This document shows positions 1 to 8,446 of a stretch of 64,000 bases of DNA, in pieces; positions within the stretch are counted from its first letter, which is position 1; every line of letters starts with the position of its first letter. This stretch comes from Phytohabitans rumicis. Lineage in GTDB: Bacteria > Actinomycetota > Actinomycetes > Mycobacteriales > Micromonosporaceae. The position numbers and the translations under genes were made by a program. Location: NCBI RefSeq assembly GCF_011764445.1, contig NZ_BLPG01000001.1:6093001-6157000 (forward strand). Reading direction: 5' to 3'. The notes beneath the pieces were generated by a model that saw nothing but the letters and a program-made list of their open reading frames with translations, made no database searches and had not been told where the DNA came from.

Positions 1-657
1 CGTCTGAGACAGGTAGGGAACTCTCAGAGCTGTAACGTCAGTGGGTGTCGCCCACCGAATATCTCCGTTCCAATAGCCATCAATCGAGGTCTTGGGCGTT
101 GCGCCGCCCCCAATCTCGGCAACATCCTCGAAGGCTACTGTGCCGGCGACCACGCTAGAGGTAGCTTGTGCGAACTCTGCTTCCGTCAATGAAACGGCGA
201 GTTTGCCTGCTCGATCATTGGTAACGACCTTGTCATCGAGCGCCCGAAGGATCTCCGCAATCGCCCGTTGCGTTCGTAGGTCAGGAATGCGCACCTCAAT
301 GCCGGCGATATAGTTGCGGTTTAGCATCGGCTGAACGCTTCCTGAATCAAATCCAGTCAGATCCAGGGTCTCAAAGAGGTGATACAAAAACTGCGGATCG
401 TTGCCCTTAAAATCTGCTACGTAAAGGGTAGTGTTCAGTGGCCAGTAATCCGTATCGCTCCAGGTGGGCTTGCCAAGGTTCGTTGCCCGCCCAACCACGA
501 ACCCGGGCCCCTTTATTGGGCCTTCGTTGTGCCAACCTGCGGTAGAGCCGGCGGACAGAACCGGATATGGACCGTGTTGACGAAGGTGGGTAGGGAGGTC
601 GAAACCACGTCGAAGCTCCAATATGTCGACAAGCCTCTTGGACTGCCAGCTAGTCAT
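1..657 (-). CDS. hsdS: Type I restriction specificity subunit HsdS, partial (cut by window edge)
   Basis: The DNA-recognition subunit of a type I restriction-modification enzyme; it binds the target sequence and assembles with two HsdM and, for cleavage, HsdR. Reading the minus strand from ATG at 657 gives an open frame of 219 codons that runs off the left end. It starts MTSWQSKRLVDILELRRGFD, continues through a first target-recognition domain, then the conserved helix after QPMLNRNYIAGIEVRIPD (RTQRAIAEILRALDDKV), and enters a second recognition domain (FEDVAEIGGGATPKTS, WATPTDV). This is the standard half-repeat layout of HsdS. The ATG overlaps the hsdM stop by eight bases, so translation is probably coupled. 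Roughly the second half of the gene lies outside the window, as would any hsdR. The DNA is visibly AT-richer than the rest of the window, which fits acquisition by transfer. Confidence 0.93.
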   Translation of the reverse strand, partial: MTSWQSKRLVDILELRRGFDLPTHLRQHGPYPVLSAGSTAGWHNEGPIKGPGFVVGRATNLGKPTWSDTDYWPLNTTLYVADFKGNDPQFLYHLFETLDLTGFDSGSVQPMLNRNYIAGIEVRIPDLRTQRAIAEILRALDDKVVTNDRAGKLAVSLTEAEFAQATSSVVAGTVAFEDVAEIGGGATPKTSIDGYWNGDIRWATPTDVTALRVPYLSQT

Positions 658-2275
658 TGAGGTGCTCCAGATTCTCGCGGACGACCTTTTCCAAACGAGC
701 GGACTCGTCGAACGCCTCCAAGAGTTCTTTCGATAGCCGGGCAATCTTTTCGTCGAGTGGTTCGCCGTCGTCCTCCGCTTGGACCACGCCGACGTAGCGG
801 CCCGGGGTCAGTGCGTAGTCGGCGTCCTTGATCTCGGCCACGGTGGCGGACTTGCAGAAGCCAGGGATGTCCTGGTAGTTCAGGCGCTTGCGGGCGGCGG
901 AGTCAGTTCCGCGCCAGGCGTGGTAGGCGTCGGCGACCTTAGCGATGTCCCTCGGATGCAACGCCCGCTCTGCCCGGTCGACCATGTAACCCAGTCCGCG
1001 GGCGTCGATGAACAGCACCTGACCGCGCCTATCCACCCCACCGTTCTTGCCCGCGCTCTTGTCCTTGGAGAAGAACCACAGGCAGACCGGGATGCCGGTA
1101 CTTCGGAACAGTTGCGTTGGCAGCACCACCATGCAAGACACGAGGTCGGCCTCGATGATACGTGCCCGGATCTGGCCTTCGCCGTTGGAGTTGGACGACA
1201 TCGACCCGTTCGCCATTACCACGCCGGCGCTGCCGGCGGGCTTCAGCTTGGAGATAATGTGCTGGATCCAGGCGTAGTTGGCGTTGTTGGCCGGCGGGAC
1301 TCCGAACTGCCAGCGAGGGTCGTCCTCCCTGCGAGTCCAGTGCTTGATGTTGAAGGGCGGGTTGGCCATCACGTAGTCCATCTGGATGTCCGCATGCTGG
1401 TCCCGGGCGAACGTGTCGCCCCATCGCGCCCCGAGGCCGGAGTTGTCGATGCCGTGGATGGCGAGGTTCATCTTCGCCATACGCCAGGTCTCCTCGATGC
1501 TCTCCTGGCCGTAGATGGCGACGTCCTTTGGGTCGCCGTCGTGCTCGTAGATGAATTTCTCGGTCTGGACGAACATGCCACCCGATCCGCAGCATGGATC
1601 GTAGACGCGGCCGCGGGACGGCTCTAGGACCTCGACGATCACCTTGACAACGCTGGGTGGGGTGAAGAACTCGCCGCCGCGCTTGCCTTCGGCCCGGGCG
1701 AAGTTGCCGAGGAAGTACTCGTACACCTCGCCCATGAGGTCTCGGGCTCGGTGCTCGCCCTGCCGGCTGAACTTGGCGCTGTTGAACAGGTCGATCAGCT
1801 CGCCTAGGCGGCGCTGGTCGATGTTGTCCTTGTTGTACAGCCTGGGCAACGTGCCAACCAACGCTGAGTTGGCGCCCATGACGGCGCTCATCGCCTCGTC
1901 GATGAGCTGTCCGATCGTCTTGGCCGGCTCGTCGCCCGCCGCCGGCCTGCCCTTGGCATTTTCCGCCAAGAACGCCCAGCGCGCCGCAGGCGGGACGACG
2001 AACACCCCGTATCCCTGGTACTCCTCGGGGTCGTCGATTAGCTCCTCTACCTGACTGTCATCCATGCCCTCGGCGGTCAGCTCCGCACGGATATGCTCGC
2101 GGCGCTCGTCGTACGCGTCCGAGACGTACTTGAGGAAGACGAGACCTAGGATGACATCCTTGTACTGGCTGGCTGATAGGGACCCACGCAGGCGATCGGC
2201 GGCCTTCCAGAGGGTGTCCTTTAACTCCTTCATCGTCGATGGCGCCGACGGCTCCTGCCTCTTGCGCGGTGGCAT
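650..2275 (-). CDS. hsdM: Type I restriction-modification methyltransferase HsdM
   Basis: N6-adenine DNA methyltransferase subunit of a type I system; it transfers methyl from S-adenosylmethionine to the adenine chosen by HsdS and supplies the core of the restriction complex. The 541-residue protein has the N-terminal helical HsdM domain (about 15-160), then the N6-MTase fold with the cofactor motif DPCCGSGG at 226-233 and the catalytic NPPF at 305-308. Length and order match ordinary HsdM proteins, so it should be active. The start ATG at 2275 follows an AGGAAGGA ribosome site and lies 14 bases after the upstream gene, and the 3' end overlaps hsdS, so all three genes form one leftward operon. 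Confidence 0.95.
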   Translation of the reverse strand: MPPRKRQEPSAPSTMKELKDTLWKAADRLRGSLSASQYKDVILGLVFLKYVSDAYDERREHIRAELTAEGMDDSQVEELIDDPEEYQGYGVFVVPPAARWAFLAENAKGRPAAGDEPAKTIGQLIDEAMSAVMGANSALVGTLPRLYNKDNIDQRRLGELIDLFNSAKFSRQGEHRARDLMGEVYEYFLGNFARAEGKRGGEFFTPPSVVKVIVEVLEPSRGRVYDPCCGSGGMFVQTEKFIYEHDGDPKDVAIYGQESIEETWRMAKMNLAIHGIDNSGLGARWGDTFARDQHADIQMDYVMANPPFNIKHWTRREDDPRWQFGVPPANNANYAWIQHIISKLKPAGSAGVVMANGSMSSNSNGEGQIRARIIEADLVSCMVVLPTQLFRSTGIPVCLWFFSKDKSAGKNGGVDRRGQVLFIDARGLGYMVDRAERALHPRDIAKVADAYHAWRGTDSAARKRLNYQDIPGFCKSATVAEIKDADYALTPGRYVGVVQAEDDGEPLDEKIARLSKELLEAFDESARLEKVVRENLEHLND

Positions 2276-2289
2276 CTCTATCGTCCTTC

Positions 2290-4170
2290 CTAGACCTTGC
2301 TTCGGGGCACAACACTTACCGCGCCGGCGGCCACGCCGTCGATCAGGGCGGTGATGAGATCATGCAGGGCGGCCTGCCGCTCGCGCAGCGCCGCGCCGTA
2401 GGTGGACGCGTCGGCCAGCGCTGCTTCGAGGGCCTCGGCAGCGTCAGAGTCAAGGCGGGGGACGCTCCACGTCCGCCACTCGCTGGTCGACGCTTGATGG
2501 TTGATGATGGCAGCCATGGTGTGCGGGCCGACACCGGCTCCTGATCTCAACCGCAAAATCCGAGATGGAGATGCCACCAGGGCGCCGCCGCGTTCGTCAA
2601 CGCGGGCGTGCGGGCTCGCGCTTCCGACGAAAATGACATCACCGGGCTCCGTGCGGCTGGCCCGTGGGTAGAGGCGCGGGGCGTCGAACGGGTCCAGTGC
2701 TACGTCGTCCATGGCGCCATCCGCGCTAAGGACAGGAACCGAGCCGTCGGCTACGCCGTCCTTGGAGTCGATTCGGCTGCCCCGAAGGACGTCCAATTGG
2801 CCGGCGTCGCGCAACTCGCCCAGCGACCTTTGCCGGAGCACCATCGTTCCAGGGGCCGCCGTCACCAGGACGTCCAACGGGGGCTGTGGTTCCGCGGTGA
2901 CCAACGCCGCGGCTTGCACTCGGTCCAAGTGATCGTCGGACGACGCTTTGAGGCGGGGTGCCCGTACCCCCTGCGGCACGATTGGTGAGCCGGTCAGGAT
3001 ATTGGCCAGGTCGGCGACGCGGAGATAGCGAAACGCGCGGCGGCCGTCTCCGGTTAGCGCCCCGGAGATGTCGGCGGCGACATCCTCTACGGCCACGTCA
3101 GCAGGCGGGAACGCCCCGAGGTCCGCCACCATTGGCCGGTCCGTAGTCCGGTCGCCCGTGCAGACCCAAATGCCAAGTGCCTGGCGATGCGCCTCCCGCC
3201 ACATCCCGCGCGGCAGGCGCATCGCGGCGACGAGTCGCCCTGGCCGGAGCATCTTCGCCCTGAACCGCTCGTCATCGCCACGCAGCGGCTCACACAGCGC
3301 GCTCGCCGGTCCGATCACGACTCCAACCTCGCCTTTGCCCAAGCCGAGTAGCAGATCATCGATCTTGTCGAGGGCCGCGTCGTGCTCTTGGCCCAAGACG
3401 GACAGTACGTGCACCAGCGGCGGGGCCGCGTTGTCCGAAACATCGAGGCCGTGAATCGCTGCCCGACGGCGCACCGCGCGTTCGGCCGATCCGTTGCCGA
3501 CGACAACCAGTTCGCGCGCCTCGGAGGCTATAGCCACCGGGAGACTCGGCGGACTACCGGTGAAGACGATCGGCACTCCGTCCGGATCGAGGTACATGGT
3601 GCTGGCTCGGACGACGGCGTTGACCAGGGTCGTTGCCTCCGCCGTAAGTTCTCGGCGGCCGAGGGCTCGACCAGCCGGGCCGCCCTCCAGGCGGGCCAGT
3701 GCCTCGGGAAGCCCGCGAGACGCCTCAATCAGGTCGTCGATGTACTGCGGGACATCGTGGTCAACGCGTAACTGCCTGACCTCGCTCAGAAGGAAGCTGT
3801 CGCCGCGGTCGCTGCGCTCCGCTAAGCTCTCCCGCTCGCCAGCGCTCAGGTCCGCGAGGTCGCTGTCGCCGTACGCGTACAGGCAAAGCAGTGTCACGAG
3901 GTCCTCCAGCGACATGCCCACCGGGACGCTCAACGCCGGCGCGTCGAGATGATGCTGGGCGTTGTTGCCCCGGCCGGTACGCGCGAGCCAGTCGACAATC
4001 TCGTCACGCCGGAAGCGCTCCACGGAGTCGGCCGTGGGCACGGCATCAGGGAACGGCATACGCTGCCCGCGGACCAACGGCCGCCGCCGCCACATGCTCA
4101 CGACGGCGCGCTGTACGCCCGCAAGGCCAGCGATGTCCCGAAGTGTGAGGGTCGGTCCGACCTGGGTCAT
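2290..4170 (-). CDS. HTH protein with degenerate N6-methyltransferase-like and HsdS-like regions, first gene of the hsd operon
   Basis: Role not established. The 626-residue protein opens with a helix-turn-helix (about 8-30, LRDIAGLAGVQRAVVSMWRR), then a helical region and a body resembling the actinobacterial HTH-N6-MTase proteins that accompany defence loci (LVNAVVRASTMYLD, GVVIGPASALCEPLRG). I cannot find a DPACGSGG-type cofactor motif or an NPPY/NPPF catalytic motif, so methylation activity looks lost. The C-terminal part (VIFVGSASPHARVDERGG, IINHQASTSEWRTWSVPRLD, then a long helix to about 610) resembles the end of an HsdS recognition domain and its conserved helix. I chose ATG 4170 because GGAAGGGAGG precedes it at good spacing; a TTG 51 bases upstream is weaker. 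Possible jobs are operon regulation or a structural partner for HsdM/HsdS. The homology is recognised by eye only. Confidence 0.75.
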   Translation of the reverse strand: MTQVGPTLTLRDIAGLAGVQRAVVSMWRRRPLVRGQRMPFPDAVPTADSVERFRRDEIVDWLARTGRGNNAQHHLDAPALSVPVGMSLEDLVTLLCLYAYGDSDLADLSAGERESLAERSDRGDSFLLSEVRQLRVDHDVPQYIDDLIEASRGLPEALARLEGGPAGRALGRRELTAEATTLVNAVVRASTMYLDPDGVPIVFTGSPPSLPVAIASEARELVVVGNGSAERAVRRRAAIHGLDVSDNAAPPLVHVLSVLGQEHDAALDKIDDLLLGLGKGEVGVVIGPASALCEPLRGDDERFRAKMLRPGRLVAAMRLPRGMWREAHRQALGIWVCTGDRTTDRPMVADLGAFPPADVAVEDVAADISGALTGDGRRAFRYLRVADLANILTGSPIVPQGVRAPRLKASSDDHLDRVQAAALVTAEPQPPLDVLVTAAPGTMVLRQRSLGELRDAGQLDVLRGSRIDSKDGVADGSVPVLSADGAMDDVALDPFDAPRLYPRASRTEPGDVIFVGSASPHARVDERGGALVASPSRILRLRSGAGVGPHTMAAIINHQASTSEWRTWSVPRLDSDAAEALEAALADASTYGAALRERQAALHDLITALIDGVAAGAVSVVPRSKV

Positions 4171-4471
4171 GCTGCCCTCCCTTCCGCCGGCGGACTCTTC
4201 AGAACGGTAAACCCGCCCCAAGTCTCTCAGTCACTCGATGAACTGATAAGAGGGCTTATCGGTAATTCCTCTTCGCCGTGGGTCCGACGCGTGCTGTTGT
4301 AGAACCGCCCAGCAGGTCGATACCACGCAACCGGGGGCAAGAGCACGTGCACAGCGACCACCGGCGAGCGAACCGCGCCGCGAACGCGGCACCGCCTCGC
4401 CAACTACCGAACCGCTCAGCCTGGGTCCGTCACGACGACGGACCAGGGGGTCACCCGCGAGAGGCAAATCC
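4171..4471. promoter_or_regulatory. Divergent promoter region between the hsd operon and the TIGR04141 gene, with an inverted repeat
   Basis: This 301-base spacer separates two divergently transcribed defence-type genes and holds no convincing gene. At 4245-4260 it has GATAAG-AGGG-CTTATC, a six-base inverted repeat with a four-base spacer, about 75 bases upstream of the ATG at 4170. It could be the operator of the helix-turn-helix protein encoded by the first hsd gene, as in autoregulated restriction systems; that is inference. I did not find a confident -35/-10 pair. Confidence 0.4.
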
Positions 4472-6205
4472 ATGAATGTGACCGCGACTAACGCGACACC
4501 GGACCGACCCAATGTACGTAGGAACCGCGTCCCTCGTCGGCGGCATGCGGCGAGAGCGTCGCGTCCTCCGTCCACGTACCGCACCACGCTCTACCGGATG
4601 GACGATGGGGCGCCAGGCATCACCGACCTCCGTACCTACCTGAACCAGCGGTACCTGCGGCAGCACCATTTCTCGGTCAATCCGACGGAGGTCGCCGGGG
4701 CGCCAGCCCTGCTCGTTCTCGGTGATGTGCCTCAGCCTGCGGCCGATTGGTGTCCCGTCATCGCAGGGCTGACCGGAGACACCGTGACCGTTGGGTACAG
4801 CAGCGCCGGCTGCGCGTTGCTCGTCATGGTCGATGGCGCGGTGTACGCCCTGACCTACGGCACCCTCGGCCGATTCATGATCAACCTGGACCGTGTTGAC
4901 CCTGGATTCGGCATCAGGTTCGCGACCCGAGCGATCGAACCGGATCGGATCAAGCGGGTAACCCGTCGAGTCCTCGCCTCCACCGGGCGGGTCGACCGAA
5001 ACCTGGTGCCTGGCGGCCAGCACATCCGCCGCTACGGCATCGAGGGGTGGGGAGAGATCGTCGGCCAGCTCTGCGGAAGGCTCAACAATGAGCAGCTCAC
5101 CGTCACGCGCGGCACCTCCCGGGCCGTGTCAGTCGCCGCGGCGGACTCCTTGCAGATCGCAGTCAGCACTGACCCGGCCGGACTGCTCGACGACCTGCGA
5201 GAGATCAGCCGTGTCTGCGCGCTCGACACGCCCGCACCGGAACTGGACTTCATCGCCCAGGTCCGGCCGTTGCGAACGGGCGAGCGCACTGACGAATTGG
5301 ACGAGCGCCTCGACGAGCTACTGGGCGAGGAGGCCACAGACAACCTCGGGCTCGCGGTGCCGATCTCTCTGGTCGAGTACGAATCCACCGCGCAGTCGTA
5401 CATGATCAAGGTGCCGTATCGCCGGATGTACCGCCCGGAACTCGATCTCGACACGGTTCTGGAGTGTGCGCTGAGCCGACCACCAGGTCGGCGGCTGGAG
5501 GCGTTGAAGCTGGGAACCATCGGCATGTGCGCCGATCCCGACGGCCGCGAATTGCTCAGCCCGCCCGTGGCGGCGCACAAGTGGATCACGGCAGAGATTG
5601 GGCTCGGCTCAGCCCGGATGATCTACCACGAGGGACGCTGGTATGAGATTGGCGAGCGTCACCTCGATCTTCTGCGGACGGAGATTGAGAAGATCCTTGC
5701 AGGGCCGTCGACTGTCGCACTACCGCCGTGGACCAGCGACCTCGCTGATGAGGACGCTTACAACCGGTGGGCTGGTCGGCCCGCGAGCGGGTACGTGCTG
5801 CTCGACAAGCGGTTCCTCAAGACTCGCCAACACAACCGTGGCCCCGGAATCGAAGCCTGTGACCTGCTCGGACCGGACAACGAACTGATTCACGTCAAGC
5901 GTGGCAGCCGGTCGGCTCCGCTAAGTCATCTGTTCATGCAAGGCGAAGTGGCCGTAGACGCGCTGCTGCACGAGCCCGATGCACGCGAGCGGCTGGTCGC
6001 GATGGTGCGCGCCCGCGAGCCGAAGGCCATGATCGACGTGACGTTCAAGCCGCGCAAGGTCGTCTACGCGATCGCGCTCGACCCGGGAAAGACCCTGAAC
6101 GCCGACACGCTCTTCACGTTCTCGCAAGTCGCCCTGTACCGAGCTGCTCGACGGCTGCGAGGCGACGGTATCGATGTCGAAGTCGTCGGAATCCCGACTC
6201 GCTGA
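4472..6205 (+). CDS. TIGR04141 / DUF6119-family sporadically distributed protein
   Basis: A 577-residue protein of the family catalogued as sporadically distributed (TIGR04141), often found in genomic islands with restriction or other defence genes; its molecular function is unknown to me. Recognisable blocks are TTLYRM near residue 40, VYALTYGTLGRFMI (about 125-140), WYEIGERHLDLL (about 390) and the C-terminal region with GYVLLDKRFLKT, IEACDLL, LIHVKRG and LSHLFMQG, which is the best-kept part of the family. No membrane segment or signal peptide is seen. The start ATG at 4472 follows GAGAGG; a later in-frame start near the TTLYRM block is possible because the first 35 residues are basic and family-atypical. 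It is followed by a strong terminator hairpin and then the 225-residue unknown gene. Confidence 0.8.
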   Translation: MNVTATNATPDRPNVRRNRVPRRRHAARASRPPSTYRTTLYRMDDGAPGITDLRTYLNQRYLRQHHFSVNPTEVAGAPALLVLGDVPQPAADWCPVIAGLTGDTVTVGYSSAGCALLVMVDGAVYALTYGTLGRFMINLDRVDPGFGIRFATRAIEPDRIKRVTRRVLASTGRVDRNLVPGGQHIRRYGIEGWGEIVGQLCGRLNNEQLTVTRGTSRAVSVAAADSLQIAVSTDPAGLLDDLREISRVCALDTPAPELDFIAQVRPLRTGERTDELDERLDELLGEEATDNLGLAVPISLVEYESTAQSYMIKVPYRRMYRPELDLDTVLECALSRPPGRRLEALKLGTIGMCADPDGRELLSPPVAAHKWITAEIGLGSARMIYHEGRWYEIGERHLDLLRTEIEKILAGPSTVALPPWTSDLADEDAYNRWAGRPASGYVLLDKRFLKTRQHNRGPGIEACDLLGPDNELIHVKRGSRSAPLSHLFMQGEVAVDALLHEPDARERLVAMVRAREPKAMIDVTFKPRKVVYAIALDPGKTLNADTLFTFSQVALYRAARRLRGDGIDVEVVGIPTR

Positions 6206-6213
6206 CTAATCGC

Positions 6214-6241
6214 GACTGGGCCGGCATAGGCCGGCCCAGTC
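6214..6241 (+). terminator. Rho-independent-type hairpin after the TIGR04141 gene
   Basis: GACTGGGCCGGC, loop ATAG, GCCGGCCCAGTC: a perfect 12-base stem starting eight bases after the stop codon. As is common in high-GC actinomycetes there is no clear U-tract. It separates the TIGR04141 gene from the next gene by only 77 bases, so the two may be partly uncoupled. Confidence 0.7.
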
Positions 6242-6282
6242 ACCTATTGTGCATGGGTCGACACAACAGTGGGGAGGCGACG

Positions 6283-6960
6283 ATGGTGGACGTCACGGCT
6301 GAGGAAGCGGACCACGACGAGGAGCGCGCGCAGCTCATCGAGGCCATACAAGACAACCTCAACGGCGTGTACGGCCAGATCGCGGACCTAGGCTCCGAGG
6401 TGGACGACTACCTCGCCGAGTACCGCTACGACGAGGTCAAGCAGTCCATCGAGTCGTTGTCGGAGCTCATCGCGAGTAACAGCGTGGATGAAGTATCGGA
6501 GCTTGCTGACCTCTGTGCGGATGCTGGCGACGCGGGTCGAGCGGCCGAGGCACACCCGGTCACCGACAAGCTTCAGATCCCTCGATTGCTTGCCGGTGAT
6601 CTCCCGCCTGTCGCTGAGCCCACGGGGGATGAGGACTATGACGAGGTCGTCGACTCGCTGCGCAACCGAGAGGGTCGCTGTAACGATCACATCCGCAAGC
6701 TGTTCGGCTGCGCCGAGCGGTTGTGGGAGGGTGCAACCGACGCCGCGCGTTTGGGGCAGGCACGACAGGCCAACGATGCCGTGCGCCTGCTCAGGCAGCT
6801 CCCTGCCGAGTTGTCCACCGCATATTCGCTGTGGGAACGATGCCTAGTCGACCTGTACAACGAGAACCCTGCCCACCTCGGCGAGATGGGTGACATGGTT
6901 CGCGGCTTCGAGGTGTGGCTGACCGGTCGGCAGAAGGACGGGTCCGGCGTCACGGACTAG
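6283..6960 (+). CDS. Hypothetical acidic helical protein downstream of the TIGR04141 gene
   Basis: I do not recognise this 225-residue protein. It is strongly acidic in its first third (EEADHDEERAQLIEAIQDN), appears mostly alpha-helical with coiled-coil-like stretches, and has no signal peptide, membrane segment or obvious catalytic motif. ATG 6283 is preceded by GGGGAGG at seven-base spacing; the in-frame TTG at 6247 has no such site. It is codirectional with the TIGR04141 gene 77 bases away, beyond a hairpin, and is the last gene before the integrative-element remnants. An accessory or immunity-type partner of the TIGR04141 protein is possible on position alone. Confidence 0.65.
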   Translation: MVDVTAEEADHDEERAQLIEAIQDNLNGVYGQIADLGSEVDDYLAEYRYDEVKQSIESLSELIASNSVDEVSELADLCADAGDAGRAAEAHPVTDKLQIPRLLAGDLPPVAEPTGDEDYDEVVDSLRNREGRCNDHIRKLFGCAERLWEGATDAARLGQARQANDAVRLLRQLPAELSTAYSLWERCLVDLYNENPAHLGEMGDMVRGFEVWLTGRQKDGSGVTD

Positions 6961-6993
6961 CTACCTAATCCGGAGACCCCGACGGGCACAGGC

Positions 6994-7137
6994 TCACGGT
7001 GGCGGGCCGTCCGCCAACCCCGGGGACGCGCGCCTGCGGCGTTCAACCGTCGCAGTGGACGCGAAGATGAGCATTCCTTCGACCGAGATATGCAGAACGC
7101 ACGGGGCCCCCAGACACTCGCCGAACCGAGGCGCGAC
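6994..7137 (-). pseudogene. Remnant of a DUF2637 (Spd-like) gene
   Basis: Translating this stretch gives about 47 codons, including FGECLGAPCVLHISVEGM and LIFASTATVE, ending in TGA. It aligns with FGERPEVAYVLPISVDGM and LIVASTAMVD of the intact DUF2637 protein at 7763-8446. There is no start codon or first transmembrane segment; the similarity begins directly after the TAG of the neighbouring small gene and in the same frame. This is a broken second copy, indicating duplication or recombination between related integrative elements. Confidence 0.75.
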
Positions 7138-7762: not shown

Positions 7763-8446
7763 CTACCCAGGCTCGGTCCGTGTGGACATCAAGAGCCTGC
7801 GGACATGCCGTTCGGTCACGCCGAGGTGCGTGGCGATGTCCGCAATGCTCGCGTCCGGATGGTCCGCCCGCATCCTCAGTACAGCCTCGGAGGTCCGCGC
7901 ACCGCGTTGGCGTCGACGTCTGGGTGCGCTCGATCGTCGAGGGCTGTCTGACGTCCGCGCCGTCGCGGCCCTCTCGCTCGGCGGAGCTTGATCGGGCATC
8001 GCCTCGGGGTTCAGAGGGGTAGCGACAATAGCGGCGTCAGCGGGCTCGTTGACATGGTCAGCGGGCGCTGCGGACGCCGGTCCTCGCCGGGCGCGGGAGA
8101 GCATCTCCACGACCAGGAGGATTGCGACGGCTGGCCAGGCGGCGACGATGCGGGCGCCGAAGGTGGGTTGAGCTGCGGCGATATTGGCCGCCACGCTCGC
8201 GCCGACCCCGGCGAAGAAGGCGAGCCGGGCGGACCAGCGGATCGGTCGCCCGGCGCGCTGGTCGTCCACCATTGCAGTGGAGGCGACTATGAGCATCCCG
8301 TCGACCGAGATCGGCAGGACGTACGCGACCTCCGGACGCTCACCGAACTTCAACGCGACGTGGACCATATGGCTCCAGGACGACCAAGCGGCGATCGCCG
8401 CCACGGCGACAGTGCTGACATTGCGGGCGATCCGGGTAGGGTTCAT
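7763..8446 (-). CDS. DUF2637 membrane protein with C-terminal helix-turn-helix (Spd-like, integrative element)
   Basis: 227 residues. The N-terminal half is a DUF2637 domain with about four hydrophobic segments (residues 8-30, 42-62, 73-95, 100-118) and the signature VLPISVDGMLIVAS. A proline/alanine/arginine-rich linker follows, then a helix-turn-helix near the C-terminus (ASIADIATHLGVTERHVRRL, about 198-220). Proteins of this shape are typical of actinomycete integrative and conjugative elements, where DUF2637/Spd proteins are linked to intra-mycelial spread of the plasmid form; the exact job is not established. ATG 8446 has GGAGG seven bases upstream. No replication initiator, TraB translocase or integrase is visible nearby, so the element is a fragment. 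Confidence 0.8.
   Translation of the reverse strand: MNPTRIARNVSTVAVAAIAAWSSWSHMVHVALKFGERPEVAYVLPISVDGMLIVASTAMVDDQRAGRPIRWSARLAFFAGVGASVAANIAAAQPTFGARIVAAWPAVAILLVVEMLSRARRGPASAAPADHVNEPADAAIVATPLNPEAMPDQAPPSERAATARTSDSPRRSSAPRRRRQRGARTSEAVLRMRADHPDASIADIATHLGVTERHVRRLLMSTRTEPG

What the first reader, a model, noticed from the sequence alone, without database searches (positions are those of the whole stretch)
4472..6960. TIGR04141 gene with an unknown acidic partner facing a type I restriction operon
TIGR04141 proteins are known only as sporadic, island-associated proteins. Here one is divergent from a restriction operon and followed by a 225-residue acidic helical protein I cannot place. 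The pair is the best candidate in this window for an undescribed defence module.
Basis: partly seen in the sequence, partly recalled or inferred. Interest (0 to 1): 0.72.

Follow-up and report, generated by a model that had tools for sequence, protein, structure and literature searches.

The report
Methyltransferase-linked TIGR04141 defence gene module
A gene of unknown function turns out to travel with bacterial systems that destroy unmethylated foreign DNA, facing a decayed methyltransferase that looks like the regulator of one such system; the small acidic neighbour that drew attention is only a local add-on.

Summary
In detail: 4472-6205 (+) is a full-length TIGR04141/DUF6119 gene, 6283-6960 (+) encodes an acidic 225-residue protein (P2) of no known family, and a type I restriction operon faces them. 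The proposed pairing is wrong. P2 was detected beside DUF6119 in 2 of 70 full-length loci, both Phytohabitans, and a strong hairpin conserved in both separates the genes. The recurring partner lies across the divergent promoter: P3 (2290-4221, -), a helix-turn-helix plus decayed HsdM-like domain plus HsdS-like tail. P3 was found near 49 of 70 DUF6119 genes (47 divergent), with HsdM-HsdS-HsdR in 39 and a SNF2 helicase in 7. Four Pseudomonadota plasmids carry DUF6119 between hsdS and hsdR, and one actinobacterium carries it inside a DISARM operon. Upstream of P3 genes lies a palindrome whose type follows the helix-turn-helix sequence (27 of 27 genes of three groups; 43 of 54 of a fourth carry a different site); the window's copy (4242-4263) is unique in its 10.7-Mb genome. 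DUF6119's C-terminal domain has invariant residues in PD-(D/E)XK-like order, but fold searches did not confirm a nuclease. Best reading: an accessory effector of methyltransferase-based immunity, with the restriction operon controlled by a methyltransferase-derived regulator. DUF6119's mechanism is inferred.

The parts
4472..6205 (+). DUF6119 / TIGR04141 gene, 577 aa; proposed accessory effector
   Evidence: PF19614 396 bits; TIGR04141 356 bits; neighbours of 70 full-length relatives
5645..6202 (+). C-terminal domain with invariant E427, D445, E461, D464, K476, Q490 (PD-(D/E)XK-like order)
   Evidence: five of the six 71 of 71, K476 69 of 71; all six 39 of 39 in alignment A3; AlphaFold2 model pLDDT 96.5; fold search inconclusive
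2290..4221 (-). P3: N-terminal helix-turn-helix, decayed HsdM-like domain, HsdS-like C-terminal part; likely true start ATG at 4170; proposed regulator
   Evidence: alignment A4 with 18 relatives, invariant residues V14 R16 V19 W22 R25 in the helix-turn-helix; methyltransferase motifs lost in the window copy; a relative (L070) matches N6_Mtase at 8e-31; the window copy itself has no Pfam match
4242..4263 (.). Palindrome ACTGATAAGAGGGCTTATCGGT, proposed P3 operator
   Evidence: type follows the helix-turn-helix type in 84 regions; GATAAGNNNNCTTATC occurs once in the 10.7-Mb genome; also picked up as terminator-like
650..2275 (-). HsdM, active-looking type I methyltransferase subunit
   Evidence: N6_Mtase 387 bits, HsdM_N 87 bits
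1..657 (-). 5' part of HsdS (continues upstream of the window; HsdR follows, also outside)
   Evidence: L021 = G000:C1:6077001-6097000: Methylase_S, HSDR_N/SWI2_SNF2/T1RH-like_C; start read from the sequence
6214..6241 (+). 12-bp perfect GC-rich hairpin between DUF6119 and P2, probable transcription end
   Evidence: folding z-score -5.9; the same hairpin in P. flavus L013; no T-run, so not listed by the terminator scan
6283..6960 (+). P2, 225-aa acidic protein; local accessory, not a conserved partner of DUF6119

Best explanation
The locus is an extended type I restriction-modification module. HsdM, HsdS and HsdR form the core. P3, encoded first in the hsd operon, is a former HsdM-type methyltransferase with an N-terminal helix-turn-helix; its catalytic motifs have decayed in the window's lineage and it most likely binds the palindrome in the divergent promoter and controls its own operon, and possibly DUF6119. 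DUF6119/TIGR04141 on the other side is an accessory protein of methyltransferase-based immunity in general (type I restriction-modification, DISARM-like systems), most likely a nuclease-type effector that acts with or behind the restriction complex, for example when phages block it. Shown by computation: gene families, recurrent neighbourhood, divergent layout, the palindrome and its match to helix-turn-helix type, invariant residues. Inferred: DNA binding by P3, control of DUF6119, nuclease activity, and guarding.
For: Neighbourhood: of 70 full-length DUF6119 loci, 39 have P3 with HsdM, HsdS and HsdR, 7 P3 with a SNF2 helicase (6 of the 7 also a large methyltransferase), 3 P3 only, 1 HsdM/S only, 20 none; P3 divergent in 47 of 49. 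Outside the window's family 15 of 22 full-length loci have P3 (13 with HsdM, HsdS, HsdR, leaving out L091). Plasmids: 9 of 23 distinct records have type I genes, 4 of them with DUF6119 between and overlapping hsdS and hsdR (others). One DISARM operon DrmD-DrmMI-DUF6119-DrmA-DrmB (L231). Even phylum sample: 5 of 8 full-length loci near P3, type I genes or DISARM. Operator: with null about 0.001 per region; unique in the genome. DUF6119 copies 95% identical sit beside P3 proteins only 26% identical, so it works beside different cassettes. Invariant catalytic-type residues.
Against: 20 of 70 loci have no P3 or type I gene in the held flanks (5 of those are at contig ends or short records: L057, L075, L084, L124, L146; one, L089, faces PglW). 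12 of 23 plasmids have none detected (8 annotated, 4 unannotated with no profile match). Foldseek gave no match at E<=0.001 for the C-terminal model in PDB or BFVD; profile comparison with the HsdR nuclease domain failed (probability 0.3%); no PDB sequence match. P3 is much commoner than DUF6119, so it is not a dedicated partner. 11 of 54 P3-A genes lacked the searched site. Loci are related, so counts are not independent.
Confidence: 0.55

Rival explanations
1. DUF6119 and P2 form a two-gene defence or toxin-antitoxin pair.
For: Adjacent, same strand, 77 nt apart in the window and similarly in P. flavus; 4 of 8 P2 homologues lie beside type I restriction genes (window, L013, L014, L015).
Against: P2 detected in 2 of 80 DUF6119 loci examined, one genus; conserved hairpin between the genes; other genes follow DUF6119 elsewhere; P2 occurs without DUF6119 in 6 of 8 loci.
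Confidence: 0.05
2. DUF6119 is a fixed border gene of a hotspot where restriction cassettes are exchanged, without functional link.
For: In Micromonospora 95%-identical DUF6119 genes sit beside unrelated P3/hsd cassettes, often with the same further neighbours.
Against: Association recurs in other actinobacterial families with different flanks and in Pseudomonadota as overlapping hsdS-DUF6119-hsdR genes; DUF6119 inside a DISARM operon.
Confidence: 0.15
3. DUF6119 is not a nuclease but a non-catalytic factor that helps or protects the restriction complex (loading, anti-anti-restriction, DNA binding).
For: No confirmed nuclease fold; the position of the usual E of ExK is variable (H, M, C, L, A); large conserved N-terminal part of unknown fold.
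Against: Six charged or polar residues invariant across sequences down to 18% identity to the window's copy, arranged like an active site.
Confidence: 0.25
4. P3 is a second modification subunit (partner of HsdM or HsdS) rather than a regulator, and the palindrome is something else, for example a terminator hairpin.
For: HsdM-like domain with intact-looking motif I and IV in some relatives; HsdS-like C-terminal part; the palindrome is followed by a T-rich stretch on the + strand and is listed as terminator-like.
Against: Methyltransferase motifs are lost in the window lineage while helix-turn-helix residues are invariant; palindrome type tracks the recognition helix and lies about 80-136 nt upstream of P3 also in genes without a DUF6119 match nearby. 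The two roles could coexist.
Confidence: 0.15

Closest known systems
PrrC in the EcoPrrI type IC locus, and other genes embedded in type I loci (TgvAB, DarTG2, RloF)
   Same: An accessory effector gene carried within or beside a type I restriction operon; PrrC is activated when the restriction enzyme is inhibited (PMC12707154, passages; TgvAB PMC11411939, passages; DarTG2 PMC12255303, abstract).
   Different: DUF6119 has no PrrC, GmrSD or DarT domain in Pfam; it also occurs with DISARM; activation on inhibition is untested.
Autoregulating DNA methyltransferases M.SsoII, M.EcoRII, Ecl18kI
   Same: N-terminal helix-turn-helix on a methyltransferase, binding an operator at its own promoter (PMC3874152, passages).
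   Different: P3 is related to the N6 (HsdM) kind, its catalytic motifs are lost in the window lineage, and the system is type I with a separate active HsdM.
RptR, repressor of type I restriction islands
   Same: Dedicated repressor acting on an operator upstream of a type I island (PMC12255303, abstract).
   Different: RptR is a small protein binding TAGCTA; P3 is a 643-codon methyltransferase-like protein with a 20-bp palindrome.
DISARM class 1
   Same: DrmD-DrmMI-DrmA-DrmB operon contains DUF6119 in L231.
   Different: The window's core is HsdM-HsdS-HsdR, not DISARM.

Membership tests
TIGR04141 / DUF6119 | Score above the curated cut-off over the full length | tested here: met
   396 vs 27 bits; 356 vs 35 bits
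Type I restriction-modification | HsdM, HsdS and HsdR encoded together | tested here: met
   operon order
Type I restriction-modification | Methylation and restriction activity | not testable with these tools
   needs experiment
PrrC-like restriction guardians | Gene embedded in or beside a type I locus | tested here: met
   window; 4 plasmids with hsdS-DUF6119-hsdR
PrrC-like restriction guardians | PrrC homology (anticodon nuclease) | tested here: not met
   only DUF6119 matched at E<=1 in Pfam
PrrC-like restriction guardians | Activation when the restriction enzyme is inhibited | not testable with these tools
   needs experiment
PD-(D/E)XK nucleases | Catalytic D...(D/E)xK pattern in an alpha/beta core | tested here: inconclusive
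   E-x17-D-x15-E-x2-D-x11-K-x13-Q invariant, but no acidic residue at the usual ExK place
PD-(D/E)XK nucleases | Significant fold or profile match to a member | tested here: not met
   no Foldseek match at E<=0.001; hhalign to HsdR nuclease domain 0.3%. Weak hits include 4g6u and 4zqu (CdiA-CT) and XPF, recalled to be of this fold, behind a glutaminase
SsoII-type autoregulating methyltransferase | N-terminal helix-turn-helix and conserved operator upstream | tested here: met
SsoII-type autoregulating methyltransferase | Active 5-methylcytosine methyltransferase domain | tested here: not met
   N6-type relatives, motifs lost in the window copy
SsoII-type autoregulating methyltransferase | DNA binding and repression | not testable with these tools
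   needs experiment

The most novel reading that the evidence does not exclude
DUF6119 is a general back-up effector for methyltransferase-based immunity: it stays in place while restriction cassettes beside it are exchanged, and fires when the resident methyltransferase system is blocked or lost. P3 is a methyltransferase turned transcription factor that couples expression of the restriction operon (and perhaps DUF6119) to the state of the modification system through a conserved 20-bp palindrome.
Probability: 0.3. Interest if true: 0.8.

Novelty: new variant of a known kind. Interest (0 to 1): 0.62.

Why it matters
TIGR04141/DUF6119 has no described function; my searches of the open-access library found no paper on it. 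Linking it to type I restriction-modification and DISARM gives a testable role to a sporadic family. The P3 result, a decayed HsdM-like protein with a helix-turn-helix whose type predicts the palindrome in front of its gene, gives a directly testable regulator for a large group of actinobacterial restriction operons. If DUF6119 acts as a back-up when restriction is blocked, it would join the small set of restriction guardians.

Tried and rejected
P2 as the partner: rejected on co-occurrence and the hairpin. P2 in viral contigs: 6 pattern matches, none a relative by tblastn. Full-length DUF6119 fold search: best E 7e-4 to a bacteriophytochrome with TM 0.09, judged meaningless. PDB sequence searches: profile A1 gave two hits at E 0.11 and 0.3, P0003 none, A3 none. 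Foldseek of the C-terminal domain in PDB and BFVD: nothing at E<=0.001. hhalign against the HsdR N-terminal domain: negative, although HsdR shows a similar spacing D-x13-E-L-K-x14-Q. P3 as a dedicated partner of DUF6119: rejected, because P3-like matches are far commoner (247 of 354 genomes at E<=1e-20, a count that also takes in HsdM; only three candidates per genome were scored and the list was cut). A sigma-70 promoter scan of 4100-7000 found none.

Rows dropped: L100-L116 were left out of the tally as the same contigs (equal contig lengths) as genome-search loci, and L120, L121, L126, L134, L140 likewise. From, two matches (G104, G027; 34 and 31 bits) were not fetched. In one search, 46 of the 49 genomes were searched (G027, G104, G221 left out). 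Three plasmid records that repeat another one (second AB2/73, R. ruizarguesonis and S. meliloti records) were not examined. L189 was left out because its region lies at a contig end; its site lay 11 nt before the match start.

Limits of the palindrome test: site B and the A sites were first seen in the DUF6119-linked set, so only the 39 other regions are independent for those; the KPAV variant was first seen in those 39, so it is not independent. That these genes lack DUF6119 rests on no match on the same contig nearby; several assemblies are fragmented (for example L197).

Full report
What is there. The window belongs to a 10.7-Mb genome of the same genus as a genome whose contig length equals that of Phytohabitans flavus NBRC 107702. 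Reading outward from a divergent promoter region at about 4222-4471, one strand carries P3 (2290-4221), HsdM (650-2275), HsdS and HsdR (the last two run on upstream of the window); the other carries DUF6119 (4472-6205) and P2 (6283-6960). The families of HsdM, HsdS, HsdR and DUF6119 are certain. P2 and the window's P3 match nothing in Pfam at E<=1.

Is P2 the partner? P2 homologues were found in 8 of 354 genomes of the family, including the window's. Two lie directly after DUF6119 (window and P. flavus L013); the other six are in loci without DUF6119 in the fetched flanks. Four of the eight lie beside type I restriction genes (window, L013, L014, L015). A profile of the eight, run over 396 genomes spread over the phylum, matched 6, of which only the own genome is convincing. 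Of 80 DUF6119 loci scanned with the P2 profile, 2 had it. In both species a perfect 12-bp GC-rich hairpin stands between the DUF6119 stop and P2 (folding z-scores -5.9 and -4.2); it lacks a T-run and the terminator scan did not list it, so its role as a terminator is inferred. P2 is therefore a lineage-specific, restriction-associated acidic protein, not the partner.

What recurs beside DUF6119. DUF6119 occurs in 49 of 354 genomes of the family and 12 of 396 across the phylum. After removing duplicates, 80 loci were scanned, 70 with full-length DUF6119: 39 have P3, HsdM, HsdS and HsdR; 7 have P3 with a SNF2 helicase (6 of them also a large methyltransferase); 3 P3 only; 1 HsdM and HsdS only; 20 none. 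P3 is divergent from DUF6119 in 47 of 49 and within 1.5 kb in the same 47. Outside the window's family the figures are 13, 1, 1 and 7 of 22 (without L091, whose contig equals that of a Glycomyces placed in the family by the tool). For scale, N6_Mtase matches number 172 in 356 Mb of 46 DUF6119-bearing genomes, which gives about 1% for one within 10 kb of a random point; this count includes the P3 and HsdM genes themselves. The loci are related to each other, so I give no P value.

The link is wider than Actinomycetota. Two protein searches of plasmids gave 26 records, 23 after removing repeats. Nine have type I genes in the fetched stretch. In four of them DUF6119 lies between hsdS and hsdR and overlaps both. 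One has an N-6 methylase gene several genes away and one has P3 only. Eight annotated records show none and four unannotated ones gave no profile match. In the phylum sample 8 loci had full-length DUF6119: five near P3, type I genes or DISARM (L227, L228, L230, L231, L234), one with only a weak HsdM match (L229), two none (L233, L236); L230 has the length of plasmid pM92, seen already. L231 is a DISARM operon in the order DrmD, DrmMI, DUF6119, DrmA, DrmB. L089, counted as none above, faces a PglW gene.

Cassette exchange. In 19 Micromonosporaceae loci that share a DUF4352 lipoprotein-type gene, DUF6119 genes up to 95% identical sit beside P3 proteins only 23-26% identical, with type I or SNF2-type systems. 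DUF6119 thus stays while the methyltransferase module changes. This fits a general helper or back-up, but equally a passive border gene; the operon-embedded plasmid cases and the DISARM case argue against pure hitch-hiking.

P3 and its palindrome. P3 relatives share an N-terminal helix-turn-helix with invariant residues (18 of 18 in alignment A4), an HsdM-like domain (N6_Mtase 8e-31 in L070) and an HsdS-like tail (read from the alignment). Methyltransferase motifs I and IV range from intact-looking to absent; in the window and P. flavus they are gone. In front of P3 genes a palindrome stands out. In 84 regions (45 DUF6119-linked, 39 not), helix type and site type go together: RPVV-type helices with TGATAA-N6-TTATCA in 18 of 18, the window's RAVVSMW type in 2 of 2, KPAV with TGTTATCCCGGGATAACA in 7 of 7, and RAAVSNW/RATVSNW with a TGAAAGC/TGTGAAC...TGTCAA site in 43 of 54, with none of these 54 showing the first type; 3 regions could not be typed; shuffled regions gave about 0.001-0.002 per region. 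The window's arms, GATAAGNNNNCTTATC, occur once in the whole genome, in this promoter region. This is strong computed evidence that P3 reads this site; binding and repression are untested. P3 is far commoner than DUF6119, so it is a regulator of restriction operons first.

DUF6119 itself. Its C-terminal domain carries E427, D445, E461, D464, K476 and Q490, invariant in 39 of 39 diverse sequences (in the wider alignment 71 of 71, K476 69 of 71). Order and predicted secondary structure (pLDDT 96.5) resemble PD-(D/E)XK nucleases, but the usual acidic residue two before K is variable, Foldseek found nothing at E<=0.001, and comparison with the HsdR nuclease domain failed. The weak PDB hits include CdiA-CT toxins and XPF, which I recall as PD-(D/E)XK nucleases, but a glutaminase ranks first. 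A nuclease effector is my leading guess, not a result.

Mechanism. Most likely the hsd operon is autoregulated by P3 at the palindrome, and DUF6119 is expressed beside it as an accessory effector of methylation-dependent immunity. Accessory effectors in type I loci are known: PrrC (PMC12707154, passages), TgvAB (PMC11411939, passages) and DarTG2 (PMC12255303, abstract); PrrC is switched on when the restriction enzyme is blocked. Methyltransferases that repress their own genes through an N-terminal helix-turn-helix are known in type II systems (PMC3874152, passages). I found no paper on DUF6119 or TIGR04141: TIGR04141 0 papers, 'sporadically distributed protein' 0, DUF6119 one paper whose title concerns wheat MADS-box genes; subscription journals and preprints were not searched.

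Verdict. Observation confirmed; partner misidentified; defence link supported and extended. New variant of a known kind. 

Noticed in passing
L021:1202-4813 (G000:C1:6078202-6081813), upstream of the window: A 1204-aa protein with an N-terminal SEFIR/TIR domain and an N6/Eco57I-type methyltransferase domain, about 11 kb before the window starts.
   Followed up: no
L020:7851-10756 (G000:C1 about 4190350-4193255): A second DUF6119 and P3 in the own genome, each split over several frames, beside long HsdM, HsdS and HsdR reading frames; looks like a degraded copy.
   Followed up: partly
L055, L061, L076: An AIPR-type gene (abortive infection family) lies between hsdS and hsdR in these P3/DUF6119 loci.
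   Followed up: no
window 7766-8446 (-); also L013, L020, L051, L074: A DUF2637 gene recurs downstream of DUF6119 in five loci (cluster c12; Pfam), which may mark a mobile element.
   Followed up: no
L173, L175, L176, L177, L179, L181, L184: P3 genes with a KPAV-type helix have the palindrome CTGTTATCCCGGGATAACAG-like, with the arm letters rearranged.
   Followed up: partly
L234:7992-12312: HsdM, DUF6119 and HsdS matches in a row on one strand in a distant member of the phylum.
   Followed up: no
L144, L145, L146 (viral contigs): Full-length DUF6119 genes on three IMG/VR contigs, without restriction genes in the held flanks.
   Followed up: no
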